Assembly (NCBI GenBank): GCA_017482055.1 | Contig: JAFUOH010000004.1 | Location: 1-61,554, forward strand | Direction of reading: 5' to 3' | Length of the DNA stretch: 61,554 nt | Origin: Clostridia bacterium | GTDB taxonomy: Bacteria > Bacillota > Clostridia > Oscillospirales > CAG-272 | In this document: positions 48,586 through 52,560 of the stretch, piece by piece | Numbering within the stretch: position 1 is the stretch's first letter | How the letters are laid out: each line of letters opens with the position of its first letter | The notes under the pieces: model-generated | The model's database searches: none | What the model was told of the DNA's origin: nothing | The model's input: only the letters and a program-made list of their open reading frames with translations | Translations under genes and position numbers: made by a program

Positions 48586-51084
48586 TCATTCAATACCAAA
48601 ATCCTGTTCTAACAGTCTATTTTTATAACTATCAATTGTTTTATTAATTGTGTCGATAAATTCATCTGTGTTTGTTTCTATGCTTATGGATTTCACTATT
48701 TGTCGAATTTCAGAATAACGAGAAGTATTATGATGTAATATCAATTCACTAAAATAATCACTCGCATTTCTACAAATGTATGTATAATAGTGTTTATACA
48801 ACTTGGTGCTGCCACTAACAACAAAATCATCTTTTGGACAAAAAGCTTGTAACACCGCAACCCTTTTTAATTCATCATCAAGTGTTGAATCGGTTGATCG
48901 TGTAAGATTTACGTAATGTTTTGGTAAATTATCATCATCGGCCGTTAACAATAGCATTTGTGTATCAGCATATCCTTCTCTAAAAACATAAACAATATGT
49001 TCAAACATTGGATATGATAATTTACCCTGTTCAGATACCTTGTGACATTCAATTTCGCCTATCTTATGTTGCAACATTTCAATAAAATCGTATGCCAACA
49101 AATTAATTATTAGATTTTCTGTAAATAATTTGTTTTTATTGTCACCTTTGACAATGTTATCATTTGACACAAGTTTTTTTAGAAAATCAGAACTTTTTGT
49201 TGTAACATAGTTACTTAGTGAAACACCTTCGTATGCGGTAGAAAGAATACCTGTAAGTTCGCTGAAAAGATCATCAAGATCGGTATCATAAAATTCTTTT
49301 GTTTTATTAACAAAATATTCGACAAGCCGATCCGCATAATAATACTGTTCACCATTAAACAAATCGTCTGCAAATATAGAATCATAAAAAGCGTTTACAA
49401 GTTTTTCAAAGAACAAATATTGCTCCACTTCGCTTTCAAAAATGGATAGTATATCCTTTTCAATGGCAATACTTGTATAATTGTCACTATATATTTCTAT
49501 CAACAAACAAGCTAATAAACTTTTAACATATAGTTTTGCACGTTTTTTTCTCAAATCCGCCGTTTGACCTACATGATGAGCAATTTCATGTGCAATTGTT
49601 GCTATTGTATTTGAAATGTTATAAATTTCTTTGTCGTTAATATGTATAATAAGGATATTTTGTTCGTTACCTAAATCCCGATTTTGTGTAAGAGAATCTA
49701 CATATATGTCATTTTTGAAATCAGGACACAAGAGAAAATGATATTTGTTATTGGTTTTGTCGTCGCTTAAACAACATACCATTTGATTTGCAATTGCTGT
49801 ATAGAAAGCAATTAATTTTGGGGGAATATCAAAATACATTAATTGATATGGATCCGTTTGGATGAATTTACGCTCACTATGGAGCATACTTGTTGAAACA
49901 GACTGCATATGATTGAAAAATTTGTTCATAACATCTATTATTAGTTCAGAACGTGTTCTTGCATAGTCCTTGTTCGACCTTGGTTTATCGGACAACTCGA
50001 ATATATTAGAAGCTTTTAATATTTTTTTATCAATATATTCCAACAAACCATAGAACGATTCAATAAAACTCAAAATATAGTACTGAGAAATGCCTCTGTT
50101 CAACGTCGAAATAATCATTTTTTGAGTTTCGAACAAAAACTGCTGTAAATAGTTCGTAAAATATGAAACATTTGAAACATTTTTTTCTAAATTGGATTTG
50201 CGGTAACTATCGCAATAATAATCAAATATCTTTTCTCCTAATACACAAAGTTTAGAATTTATATCTTCGCTTTGATCTTTATTAAAATACTCTCCGTTTA
50301 ATTTGTCCTGTAAGTCTTTTATATCTACGCCTATATGAACCTTGGTAGAAACAAGGCTATCGTTTTGAGTGGATATTTGTTCTGTAAGTTTTACTAATGT
50401 ATCAAATGAAATATTATCGTATACTAATAAAGTGTCATACCGTCCAAGAGTAGAAATTTTAATGTTCGGAGAAAAATCCATGTTGGCGAATTGATTGTAG
50501 TCTCCTACATTAACAACGGCAGATAAAGATTTTTCCTTATCAAGATTAGAGCCGGGAATGTATGCATACAATGATATAATATCGTGAACATTTTCATCTT
50601 CTTTGATTTTATGTAAAACATCCATGTATGCAACTAAAGACAGTTTATCTCCATTCGCTACCAATACGTAATCACAATGATCAAAAGTATGATATAAACT
50701 TATATTCTCATTTTTTTCAAGAAATGGAATCTTAGTTGAAGAAGTTACATTTATAAACGATATATACACGAGAGAGGGAGAATTTTGGACAGATGACAAA
50801 ACATCATCTTCGTTTTCAGAAAGCAATATCAAACTTTGTTGTATGTGGTAGTTTTTGCTTTCGCTATAGCAAATTCGAATTTTCTCAATTTCATCACGCG
50901 CATCACATAGCAAATTATCAATTGATTCTTTTTGTAAAACGGAGTGTATTTCTATCCAGTCATAATAGCACATAGATTTTAAGAAAACTCTATCTTCATC
51001 ATTTGGGTTAGAACTTAAATTCAATGACTCATTACAACTTGAATAAGTGTTTTTTCCTAATGTAAATACATAACAATTTGACAT
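48586..51084 (-). CDS. Large HExxH zincin-like protein of unknown function
   Basis: 832 aa, strongly AT-rich (Asn/Lys/Ile/Ser codons) unlike the flanks. No signal peptide or membrane helix. Residues 1 to about 250 hold two similar-looking alpha/beta units, each with an [FG]xxYD[tv]LLV-like strand (FDHCDYVLVANGD near 134-146, LGRYDTLLVYDN near 213-224). The middle (about 280-400) is helical. A zinc-metallopeptidase motif HEIAHH (H499, E500, H503) sits on a predicted helix, preceded by a substrate-like strand ILIIHIND. About 200 residues later comes EGYADTQM (E703), a plausible third zinc ligand. I do not know a named family for the whole. It lies 450 nt after the DisA_N-like gene on the same strand. 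Ribosome site GGAG. Confidence 0.75.
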   Translation of the reverse strand: MSNCYVFTLGKNTYSSCNESLNLSSNPNDEDRVFLKSMCYYDWIEIHSVLQKESIDNLLCDARDEIEKIRICYSESKNYHIQQSLILLSENEDDVLSSVQNSPSLVYISFINVTSSTKIPFLEKNENISLYHTFDHCDYVLVANGDKLSLVAYMDVLHKIKEDENVHDIISLYAYIPGSNLDKEKSLSAVVNVGDYNQFANMDFSPNIKISTLGRYDTLLVYDNISFDTLVKLTEQISTQNDSLVSTKVHIGVDIKDLQDKLNGEYFNKDQSEDINSKLCVLGEKIFDYYCDSYRKSNLEKNVSNVSYFTNYLQQFLFETQKMIISTLNRGISQYYILSFIESFYGLLEYIDKKILKASNIFELSDKPRSNKDYARTRSELIIDVMNKFFNHMQSVSTSMLHSERKFIQTDPYQLMYFDIPPKLIAFYTAIANQMVCCLSDDKTNNKYHFLLCPDFKNDIYVDSLTQNRDLGNEQNILIIHINDKEIYNISNTIATIAHEIAHHVGQTADLRKKRAKLYVKSLLACLLIEIYSDNYTSIAIEKDILSIFESEVEQYLFFEKLVNAFYDSIFADDLFNGEQYYYADRLVEYFVNKTKEFYDTDLDDLFSELTGILSTAYEGVSLSNYVTTKSSDFLKKLVSNDNIVKGDNKNKLFTENLIINLLAYDFIEMLQHKIGEIECHKVSEQGKLSYPMFEHIVYVFREGYADTQMLLLTADDDNLPKHYVNLTRSTDSTLDDELKRVAVLQAFCPKDDFVVSGSTKLYKHYYTYICRNASDYFSELILHHNTSRYSEIRQIVKSISIETNTDEFIDTINKTIDSYKNRLLEQDFGIE

Positions 51085-51121
51085 AATCCTACTCCATCTA
51101 ATTAGTCTGTATCTTGAAACT

Positions 51122-51150
51122 AAAAGGGCAGTAATAAATACTGCCCTTTT
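51122..51150 (-). terminator. Terminator between the two AT-rich genes
   Basis: 12-bp perfect stem AAAAGGGCAGTA/TACTGCCCTTTT with ATAAA loop, 3 nt after the end of the open frame at 51153. The T-rich arms make it work on either strand. Confidence 0.7.
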
Positions 51151-51152
51151 GA

Positions 51153-51467
51153 TTATTTACCGTATTTTTTATCGATATCGATAGTGTTCCCCTTAGAATC
51201 AGTAAATCCCAAAAGAGTACCCGGTTTCACTGTATCTATATGATTGCTATCTTTAAAGCAAGATTTGCTTACAATATGGCTTTGAGCAATCTTATAATGC
51301 GATAACGGCACTTTTCGCTTTGTTTTTGAAAAATTAAGTCCTTCCATTCTCGTTCGGAACCACCCTTTCGTAATGGTCGCAACAAATGCGACGAGTTCTT
51401 GCAACAAATGACGAAAACTTCGCCACATATCAAGCGTGCCAACATGGGGCTTTCTGCACGCCAACAA
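51153..51467 (-). other. Transcribed-looking unit: possible small gene or ncRNA, with a GC-richer block
   Basis: An open frame of 104 codons starts with TTG and has no ribosome site. It has a consensus promoter 15 nt upstream and an intrinsic terminator 3 nt downstream, so a ~350-nt transcript is likely. Roughly 51310-51470 is clearly more GC-rich than its AT-rich surroundings and looks like an inserted repeat. The last ~45 codons (KPGTLLGFTDSKGNTIDIDK) are more protein-like. I cannot name a family. Confidence 0.35.
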
Positions 51468-51481
51468 TGCAAGTATATTGT

Positions 51482-51510
51482 ATTATACCGCATACACATT
51501 AAAATTGCAA
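51482..51510 (-). promoter_or_regulatory. Promoter inside the AT-rich pair
   Basis: Minus-strand TTGCAA (51505-51510), 17 nt, TATAAT (51482-51487) with TGCGG upstream of the -10. Confidence 0.65.
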
Positions 51511-51537
51511 CCCCATCAATCAAAAATTAACAATTTA

Positions 51538-52500
51538 TTAACAAATAGCCGATATTATATCTATGGTTTGATCGTCCGAATATATCACACCAACACAATT
51601 CTTCGTTGTTTGAACATATAATTTAATTGAGTTATATCGAGAACCTCGTCCGGAATTGCCTTCAAATTCTTTAGGAACTTTTCCATCAAAAATACATCCA
51701 TACGCATAACAGTTGGCTTCTAAATCGAAAATCAATCCACCATCAATATCCGTAATCTGCGACATGTTTGTGGCACTAAAATTTAATATAGGTGACAATA
51801 GGAAACCTCGTCCAGCTTTTTGTGAAGCTAAACGTTTAGCTTCACCCATAGCCTTCTTGTCAGATTTAAAAATTACGAAAGATGTTCCGTGATTTTGTTC
51901 AATTAAAGTATCTATCAAGATTTTGAAAGAAACTTCATTAAAGTCAGGAAGCAACTCTTTTAATTTAGCAATCGCGTCTTTTTTGTCGATCTTGTTTTCA
52001 ATATCGTAAACATTCTTGTATTTTCCGTTGCAATATCCCAAAATATCTGTTTCACCTATTCTTAAATACCATGTCATATGTTTTTTAATTGTGAATACAT
52101 AGCATTGATATTTCTTTAAAATTTCAGATAGAGAGGCAATACCAATCACTTTATATAGGTTGCCGTTTTCTTGCCCTAAAACCAAGCAATGTGACTTATC
52201 TATTGGTTGCAACATTTTTCTTAGCAATCTTACATTAGAGAAAGAAAATTCAATGTTTGTTTGTGAACTTATATGTATGTCAACATCAATTTTTGGTACA
52301 GAATCCCTATTGCTGCCAAGTGCAGGAATGAAAACTAAATTTTTTTCTTTACATTCGTTTCTTTCGTAACTTGTAGCAGAAATTTGTGTAATAATTTCTG
52401 TGTCTGGCGCTTGAGGTAACAAAGCATAAGCATTATTTATCATATCTTTTTCTTTGTCATCAATTATATCTGTATTAAATAAATTAATCAATTCACACAT
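51538..52500 (-). CDS. DisA_N (diadenylate cyclase superfamily) domain protein with N-terminal sensor-like region
   Basis: 320 aa from the ATG at 52500 (AAGGTG 8 nt upstream; a GTG at 52509 overlaps that site). Residues about 195-320 match the DAC/DisA_N fold as found in the conflict-associated DACN-type proteins: HGTSFVIFKS, EAKRLASQ, IDGGLIFDLEANCYAYGCIFDG (D253-G-G), then GRGSRYNSIKLYV (R288-Y-N) and GVIYSDDQTIDI. In housekeeping DisA these motifs read DGA and RHR; the RYN form is, from memory, the norm in this branch. Residues 1 to about 190 form an N-terminal domain with mixed strands (sensor-like, unnamed). It would make or sense a c-di-nucleotide. It has its own promoter and precedes the HExxH gene. 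Confidence 0.78.
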   Translation of the reverse strand: MCELINLFNTDIIDDKEKDMINNAYALLPQAPDTEIITQISATSYERNECKEKNLVFIPALGSNRDSVPKIDVDIHISSQTNIEFSFSNVRLLRKMLQPIDKSHCLVLGQENGNLYKVIGIASLSEILKKYQCYVFTIKKHMTWYLRIGETDILGYCNGKYKNVYDIENKIDKKDAIAKLKELLPDFNEVSFKILIDTLIEQNHGTSFVIFKSDKKAMGEAKRLASQKAGRGFLLSPILNFSATNMSQITDIDGGLIFDLEANCYAYGCIFDGKVPKEFEGNSGRGSRYNSIKLYVQTTKNCVGVIYSDDQTIDIISAIC

Positions 52501-52531
52501 TTTAGGCACCTTGAAATCTTAATATATTTTA

Positions 52532-52560
52532 ATTATATCATACTTTATGAAAAAATTCAA
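52532..52560 (-). promoter_or_regulatory. Promoter of the DisA_N-like gene
   Basis: Minus-strand TTGAAT (52555-52560), 17 nt, TATAAT (52532-52537) with TATGA upstream of the -10. Confidence 0.7.

What the first reader, a model, noticed from the sequence alone, without database searches (positions are those of the whole stretch)
48586..52560. AT-rich two-gene unit: DisA_N-like protein with a large HExxH protein
A DAC-superfamily protein (DGG and GRGSRYNS motifs, N-terminal sensor-like domain) is encoded beside an 832-aa protein with HEIAHH and a possible Glu ligand in EGYAD. Both are compositionally foreign and sit among TnpV, an integrase relic and MobV. Nucleotide-signal-plus-effector pairs of this kind are typical of anti-phage systems (CBASS-like logic). 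A protease or zincin effector controlled by a c-di-nucleotide would be new to my knowledge. All functional links are inference.
Basis: partly seen in the sequence, partly recalled or inferred. Interest (0 to 1): 0.8.

Follow-up and report, generated by a model that had tools for sequence, protein, structure and literature searches.

The report
Zinc-protease-like core with swappable partners
A pair of foreign-looking genes, one resembling an enzyme that makes a cyclic nucleotide signal and one resembling a zinc protease, turns out to be a recurring bacterial module in which the protease-like gene is constant and its partner is exchanged, which looks like an undescribed type of phage-defence system but has not been tested.

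Summary
In detail: window 48586-51084(-) encodes an 832-aa HEIAHH...EGYAD protein and 51538-52509(-) a DAC-superfamily protein, both AT-rich (GC 0.30/0.32 against 0.505 for window 1-47800). I found 16 further homologues of the HExxH protein, whose family has no accepted Pfam, NCBIfam, PADLOC or PDB match. HExxH is kept in 17 of 17, the downstream Glu in 16 of 17. Nine of 17, window included, sit beside a DAC. But the proposed direction of control (DAC signals, HExxH executes) is doubtful: 2 of 17 have a SIR2-like gene 3 nt away instead, 3 of 17 a multi-membrane-helix protein, and 0 of 7 genomes with DAC-less homologues hold this DAC elsewhere. One DAC locus adds a SLATT membrane protein. Best reading: the HExxH protein is the shared core of an abortive-infection-type module, with DAC, SIR2 or membrane proteins as exchangeable outputs. 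DACs of this family are known in defence (DS-2, joined to CBASS); a zincin-like core was not found in print.

The parts
48586..51084 (-). Large HExxH protein, 832 aa, member of a family without accepted database model (proposed shared core of the module)
   Evidence: homologues; alignment A5; no accepted family
49576..49590 (-). HEIAH, residues 499-503: putative zinc ligands and catalytic Glu
   Evidence: HExxH in 17 of 17 homologues
48964..48978 (-). EGYAD, residues 703-707: putative third zinc ligand E703, and D707
   Evidence: Glu in 16 of 17 (L085 has Asp), Asp at the 707 position in 17 of 17
51538..52509 (-). DAC-superfamily protein, 323 aa from GTG; likely start ATG at 52500 (320 aa)
52063..52398 (-). 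DACNH-like putative sensor domain (residues 38-149)
   Evidence: Pfam PF21750 E 2.3e-5, 24.7 bits against cut-off 27; 7 of 9 linked DACs match
51736..51744 (-). DGG (DGA in classical DACs, recalled), residues 256-258
   Evidence: D256 and G257 invariant in A6 (9 rows) and A7 (23 rows)
51628..51648 (-). RGSRYNS motif, residues 288-294
   Evidence: G289, R291, N293 invariant in A6 and A7
52532..52560 (-). Promoter-like site TTGAAT-17-TATAAT with TG before the second hexamer, ahead of the DAC start
   Evidence: consensus match only
51121..51151 (.). Terminator-like hairpin (13 pairs) between the DAC and the HExxH gene
51153..51347 (-). Possible small ORF (64 aa from ATG; 104 aa from TTG at 51467) in the gap; coding status unproven
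   Evidence: the window copy fails the ribosome-binding-site criterion

Best explanation
A mobile two-gene immune-type module. The constant gene encodes a large protein with a C-terminal gluzincin-pattern zinc site (HExxH + E-x-x-[A/S/C]-D) and a divergent N-terminal region. It is proposed to recognise infection, directly or as a protease acting on a cue, and to switch on the protein encoded next to it. That partner is exchangeable: a DAC-type cyclic-dinucleotide synthase (window and 8 other loci), a SIR2-like NAD-consuming protein, or a multi-TM membrane protein. In the window the output would be a burst of c-di-AMP or a related product that arrests or kills the host, through a receptor elsewhere (a SLATT membrane protein lies beside one relative) or because excess c-di-AMP is itself harmful in Bacillota (recalled). 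Shown: the pair, its recurrence, the conserved motifs, partner exchange. Inferred: phage trigger, proteolysis, direction of signalling, nucleotide product, abortive outcome.
For: HExxH 17/17 and Glu 16/17, with 15-21% identity to the window protein among the 10 others in A5: the motif is under selection. A DAC is adjacent on the same strand in 8 of the 12 matches; with the window 9 of 17. DAC first in 7 of 9, HExxH first in L064 and L065; the two ORFs overlap in L061, L064, L065. Partner exchange: SIR2_2 E 5.9e-17 (L069) and 2.8e-16 (L076), 3-nt gaps; multi-TM proteins by hydropathy in L066, L067, L068. No such DAC elsewhere in 0 of 7 DAC-less genomes. L062 adds SLATT_5 (3.8e-10), starting 4 nt inside the HExxH gene's end. 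Over 15 neighbourhoods (window not included) the widely recurring families are HExxH and DAC; others link at most three loci. DAC N-terminus before the common core: 36 residues in the window, 125-216 in the 8 others, fitting sensing outside the DAC. HExxH-linked DACs cluster on a tree of 36 DACs (9 linked, 27 of the others): 2 label changes against 8.2 in shuffles, 0 of 500 as low. A related DAC is essential in DS-2 (PMC13092281, passages).
Against: No experiment, no structure. PADLOC finds nothing in the pair, and of 9 neighbouring proteins scanned in other loci one matches (AriA-like, second gene downstream in L017): thin defence context. The DAC family mostly lives without the HExxH protein: of 39 loci brought in by DAC searches and compared only L017 has it (flanks short in some), and 1 of 28 genomes or records. 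The window DAC's highest identity on the tree is to an unlinked DAC (L008, 31%). A terminator-like hairpin and 453 nt separate the window genes, so co-transcription is unproven. No SLATT or other receptor was seen beside the window pair. Three of 17 homologues have no clear partner (L083, L084, L085). L066 and L067 are split ORFs and L084 is a 519-aa fragment. The membrane partners share no detectable homology, so calling them outputs rests on topology. One search carries the tool's warning about empty answers; its control is, another call with the same profile.
Confidence: 0.5

Rival explanations
1. One reading: the DAC senses infection and makes a cyclic dinucleotide, which activates the HExxH protein as a protease effector that damages host or phage proteins.
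For: The DAC keeps a DACNH 'probable sensor' domain and the branch's conserved motifs; pair linked in 9 of 17 loci; DS-2 DAC catalytic mutants lose defence in print.
Against: The HExxH protein occurs with SIR2 or multi-TM partners, in genomes where no such DAC was found. L062 already has a separate SLATT gene. No nucleotide-binding domain recognised in the HExxH proteins.
Confidence: 0.2
2. The HExxH protein is a processing protease, toxin-antitoxin-like: it cleaves a small linked protein or the partner's N-terminus, releasing or restraining the partner's toxicity, with no specific phage sensor.
For: A small ORF of at least 45 aa with a ribosome-binding site lies just upstream of the HExxH gene or operon in 9 of 16 loci, against 2 of 42 other gaps in the same loci (Fisher p 4.5e-5). 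Printed precedent: zincin MPTase plus small fast-diverging protein in ternary conflict systems (PMC7159879, passages).
Against: The small ORFs are mostly not alike; only L017 and L059 resemble each other (E about 1e-3 in a nine-sequence comparison at most). The window copy fails the RBS criterion. Control gaps were not length-matched; with the stricter 5-base RBS it is 4 of 16.
Confidence: 0.15
3. A regulatory, non-immune c-di-AMP module (osmotic, wall or sporulation control) that happens to be mobile.
For: c-di-AMP has housekeeping roles in Bacillota (recalled); one linked DAC of 9 weakly matches CdaS, E 0.0067; the L022 DAC relative sits by HlyIII and alanyl-tRNA synthetase genes.
Against: Sporadic presence (12 of 397 genomes of L017's family; of 97 window relatives only the window's own genome), foreign composition, exchange with SIR2, SLATT company in L062.
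Confidence: 0.1
4. Chance neighbours without joint function.
For: 453-nt gap and terminator-like hairpin in the window.
Against: Adjacency in 9 of 17 loci from divergent genomes; in 195 genomes of L017's family the 3 intact matching DACs are all beside an HExxH gene, the fourth match being a 32-residue remnant.
Confidence: 0.02

Closest known systems
DS-2 (DefensePredictor, PMC13092281, passages seen): phospholipase + cGAS-like + DAC
   Same: The DAC belongs to the same broad family (NF053872 hits 9 of 9 linked DACs)
   Different: DS-2's DAC accompanies a CBASS operon; here no CD-NTase was seen in the genes scanned and the constant partner is an HExxH protein. Window score 123.9 bits against cut-off 630
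CBASS (recalled)
   Same: Cyclic-nucleotide synthase next to an effector-type gene; SLATT in one locus
   Different: Synthase is DAC-type, not CD-NTase, and is replaceable by SIR2 or membrane proteins
Nucleotide-signal/SLATT conflict systems (Burroughs et al. 2015, recalled; SLATT as predicted nucleotide-responsive pore stated in PMC7159879, passages)
   Same: DAC plus SLATT_5 in L062
   Different: Large HExxH protein as the constant element
Protease-activated conflict systems and zincin MPTase/small-peptide pairs (PMC7159879 and PMC8195603, passages)
   Same: A peptidase beside exchangeable effectors; small diverging ORF nearby
   Different: No vWA, MoxR, VMAP, EAD, trypsin or caspase among the genes scanned; this family is not described in the passages seen
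M48/ImmA-type gluzincins (recalled)
   Same: HExxH plus downstream E-x-x-A-D
   Different: About 200 residues between motifs in the window protein; of 11 members one weakly touches Peptidase_M48 (E 0.16) and one WLM (E 0.079)

Membership tests
Diadenylate cyclase (DAC) superfamily | Sequence match to the DAC domain | tested here: met
   Window protein: NF053872 E 6.2e-36; PF02457 hits 6 of 9 linked DACs, best 7.4e-9, but not the window member
Diadenylate cyclase (DAC) superfamily | Classical DGA and RHR active-site motifs (recalled) | tested here: inconclusive
   D256, G257 and R291 invariant in all 23 rows of A7, but the window has DGG and RYN in place of DGA and RHR; RYN is shared by most of this branch, including the DS-2-like L005
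Diadenylate cyclase (DAC) superfamily | Makes c-di-AMP | not testable with these tools
   Needs biochemistry
DS-2 (NF053872) | Curated score of the equivalog model | tested here: not met
   123.9 bits against 630
DS-2 (NF053872) | CBASS phospholipase and cGAS-like gene adjacent | tested here: not met
   None among the window neighbours scanned; none among the genes of other loci that were scanned, a part of them
CBASS | CD-NTase gene | tested here: not met
   Not found among the window neighbours scanned; PADLOC empty for the pair
Gluzincin metallopeptidase | HExxH | tested here: met
   17 of 17
Gluzincin metallopeptidase | Downstream Glu as third zinc ligand | tested here: met
   Position is Glu in 16 of 17; that it binds zinc is inference
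Gluzincin metallopeptidase | Zincin fold | not testable with these tools
   Structure prediction switched off; no PDB sequence relative; one search gave two weak matches judged chance
Gluzincin metallopeptidase | Match to a known peptidase family model at its cut-off | tested here: not met
   sub-threshold only: WLM 0.079 and M48 0.16, each in one of 11 members
Anti-phage defence system | Located with other defence genes | tested here: inconclusive
   1 of 9 neighbours scanned with PADLOC matches (AriA-like, L017); the window's neighbours were scanned with Pfam only
Anti-phage defence system | Protects from phage | not testable with these tools
   Needs experiment

The most novel reading that the evidence does not exclude
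An undescribed class of bacterial immune system built around a zinc-peptidase-like core that, on infection, proteolytically or allosterically switches on whichever output is encoded beside it: a c-di-AMP burst (with or without a SLATT pore), NAD depletion by SIR2, or membrane permeabilisation. A signal synthase would then be an exchangeable output, not the sensor, the reverse of CBASS logic.
Probability: 0.35. Interest if true: 0.88.

Novelty: new variant of a known kind. Interest (0 to 1): 0.72.

Why it matters
If true, it adds a protease-centred design to bacterial immunity, places a diadenylate cyclase in the output position, and gives a testable explanation for DACs outside CBASS. It also supplies a protein family with a strictly kept zinc-site pattern and no accepted model in Pfam, NCBIfam or PADLOC, with swappable partners that make the logic experimentally separable.

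Tried and rejected
P0001 alone found no homologue beyond itself in 97 relatives or 391 class genomes, and none in plasmids or phages, viral contigs or genome contigs; the DAC route (L017) opened the family. Viral scans with P0003 and with alignments A4 and A5 were also empty. P0001 alone does find L017's genome, so the negatives carry weight for relatives as close as that. The 891-aa ORFs beside the L021/L022 DACs were considered as relatives; the L022 one is alanyl-tRNA synthetase (the L021 one has the same length and place and was not scanned). The RNase L match (E 0.008) lies outside the HExxH region and is taken as chance. An internal repeat in the N-terminus gave hhalign probability 21.5%: not claimed; no relation to the DAC N-terminus was seen (same call). 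Rfam gave only sub-threshold DapZ matches over the hairpin, on both strands. The gap sequence matched nothing beyond itself and its own inverted hairpin in 19 genomes, and one plasmid over 11% of its length. G230 (E 0.0076; 445-aa ORF without HExxH) was dropped from the 17. Eleven of the DAC loci fetched were left out of the tree. The first control for the small ORFs wrongly included test gaps and was replaced.
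Full report
What is there. Window 48586-51084(-) encodes 832 aa with HEIAHH (499-504) and EGYAD (703-707); 51538-52509(-) encodes a DAC-superfamily protein with DGG and RGSRYNS. The likely DAC start is the ATG at 52500, just after a promoter-like site. Both genes are AT-rich (GC 0.299 and 0.316; GC3 0.24-0.25) against 0.505 for window 1-47800, with TnpV on one side and, beyond an HTH gene and two ABC transporter genes, Mob_Pre and ParB on the other. The genes are 453 nt apart with a terminator-like hairpin between.

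Identity of the DAC. NF053872 (DS2_3_antiphage) matches at E 6e-36 but far below its equivalog cut-off. DACNH is sub-threshold. Of the nine HExxH-linked DACs, 9 match NF053872, 7 DACNH and 6 the Pfam DAC domain. D256, G257, R291 and N293 are invariant in the 23 rows of A7; the window's DGG and RYN differ from the classical DGA and RHR (recalled). So it is a DAC-superfamily member; its product is unknown.

Identity of the HExxH protein. The window protein has no Pfam, NCBIfam or PADLOC match. Of 11 family members none matches NCBIfam at E 0.1, and Pfam gives only scattered single-member matches with E 0.011 or worse, among them the zincin families WLM (0.079) and M48 (0.16). There is no PDB relative (one search gave two weak matches judged chance).

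Finding relatives. Direct searches failed. A DAC alignment scan of genome contigs gave 25 loci. In one, L017 (titled Lachnospiraceae bacterium UBA7196), a 904-aa HELAH protein follows the DAC and matches P0001 at E 4e-25. L017's DAC is also the best phmmer match to the window DAC among the 39 loci of that call; on the tree the nearest rows by path are the HExxH-linked L062 and L061, while the highest identity (31%) is to L008, an unlinked DAC. A profile of the two HExxH proteins matched 12 of 397 genomes of L017's family, L017's own included. An 11-member profile matched 3 of 245 class genomes (the window's own, G146, and G230, which was dropped) and 3 of 226 order genomes (L017's own, G929 with two places, G965). 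With the window that makes 17 homologues.

Conservation. HExxH is intact in 17 of 17; the downstream position is Glu in 16 of 17 and Asp in L085; the final Asp of the motif is present in 17 of 17. Identity to the window protein in A5 is 15-21%. So the zinc-site pattern is under strong selection while the rest has diverged.

Partners. Of 17: DAC in 9 (window, L017, L059-L065); SIR2_2 in 2 (L069, L076; 3-nt gaps); proteins with three or four predicted N-terminal membrane helices (hydropathy) in 3 (L066, L067, L068); no clear partner in 3 (L083, L084, L085; L085 has a membrane-helix protein 428 nt upstream). L062 has a SLATT_5 gene whose start overlaps the end of the HExxH gene by 4 nt. Seven of the nine DAC loci have DAC first; L064 and L065 have HExxH first. 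Over 15 neighbourhoods compared by BLAST (window and L084 not included) HExxH and DAC are the widely recurring families; SIR2 recurs in its two loci, and other similarities link two or three loci. In 7 genomes with DAC-less homologues no such DAC was found (which bears the tool's warning about empty answers); the same profile did find it in three genomes known to hold it.

Is the DAC tied to the HExxH gene? In 195 genomes of L017's family 4 match the DAC profile; three are intact and beside an HExxH gene, one is a 32-residue remnant with no recognisable partner around it. Outside that family the answer is no: 1 of 39 loci brought in by DAC searches (flanks short in some) and 1 of 28 genomes or records have the HExxH gene. 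Some relatives sit with patatin and nucleotidyltransferase genes as in DS-2 (L003, L005). On a tree of 36 DACs the linked members need 2 changes against 8.2 in shuffles, 0 of 500 as low. On the HExxH tree the DAC label also clusters (2 changes against 6.0; 1 of 500 as low). Both trees have many weak, long branches.

Mechanism. Partner exchange around a constant HExxH protein argues that this protein is the hub and that DAC, SIR2 or membrane proteins are outputs. SIR2-like, SLATT and membrane proteins are typical abortive-infection effectors (recalled; SLATT as predicted nucleotide-responsive pore: PMC7159879, passages). The window DAC has the shortest N-terminus of the nine (36 residues before the common core against 125-216), which fits sensing outside the DAC, though the DACNH domain remains. 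Nothing here shows infection sensing, proteolysis or nucleotide synthesis.

A possible third gene. A small ORF with a ribosome-binding site lies upstream of the HExxH gene or operon in 9 of 16 loci (L084 not examined), 0.42 expected from order-1 Markov sequence; with a stricter 5-base site 4 of 16, 0.14 expected. Other gaps of the same loci give 2 of 42 (p 4.5e-5; gap lengths not matched). The window copy fails the criterion. L017's and L059's small proteins are weakly alike (E about 1e-3 in a small set). This is a lead, not a finding.

Known work. DS-2 is phospholipase + cGAS-like + DAC; mutation of two predicted DAC catalytic residues abolished defence in each case, and 15 of 30 DAC homologues were near CBASS (PMC13092281, passages). 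That paper's main text holds no 'protease' and one 'peptidase' (an M15 family peptidase). Galperin 2023 on DAC architectures, the likeliest place for an earlier mention, is not held and was not seen. Ten literature searches listed no paper whose title or abstract start describes a DAC-zincin pair; two searches showed only part of their matches (20 of 25, 12 of 7,919), and the library lacks most subscription papers.

Verdict. Observation confirmed; interpretation partly supported, with the direction of control probably reversed. A well-supported recurring gene module of unproven function.

Noticed in passing
window 51153-51467(-); L017 10901-11224; L059 11107-11380; L063 5091-5454: Small ORFs (about 54-104 aa) in the gap between the DAC and the HExxH gene; RBS-preceded ones are enriched upstream of the HExxH gene or operon across the family (9 of 16 against 2 of 42 control gaps).
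   Followed up: partly
window 51085-51537(-): The gap folds more stably than shuffles (z -3.06, 0 of 100 shuffles as stable), with a promoter-like TTGCAA-17-TATAAT at 51510-51482; no Rfam family above threshold.
   Followed up: partly
L062 11617-12273: SLATT_5 membrane protein gene overlapping the end of the HExxH gene: a possible receptor for the DAC product.
   Followed up: partly
L069 10628-11980 and L076 6763-8064: SIR2-like genes 3 nt from the HExxH gene, homologous to each other (E 1e-57).
   Followed up: partly
L005 2926-6600 (Citrobacter conjugative plasmid) and L003 3239-6909 (Gluconobacter plasmid): Patatin, nucleotidyltransferase and DAC genes side by side, resembling DS-2, on plasmids.
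   Followed up: no
L021 9428-14236, L022 1-4271: A DAC of this family beside HlyIII-type and alanyl-tRNA synthetase genes (Pfam run on L022 only), perhaps a housekeeping branch.
   Followed up: no
G929 (loci L083, L084): Two HExxH homologues in one genome without DAC; one has an AAA-ATPase/PD-(D/E)XK-like gene 132 nt upstream.
   Followed up: no
L017 15197-16522: AriA-like AAA_15 ATPase (PADLOC E 5.1e-36), second gene downstream of the pair, a possible PARIS-like neighbour.
   Followed up: no
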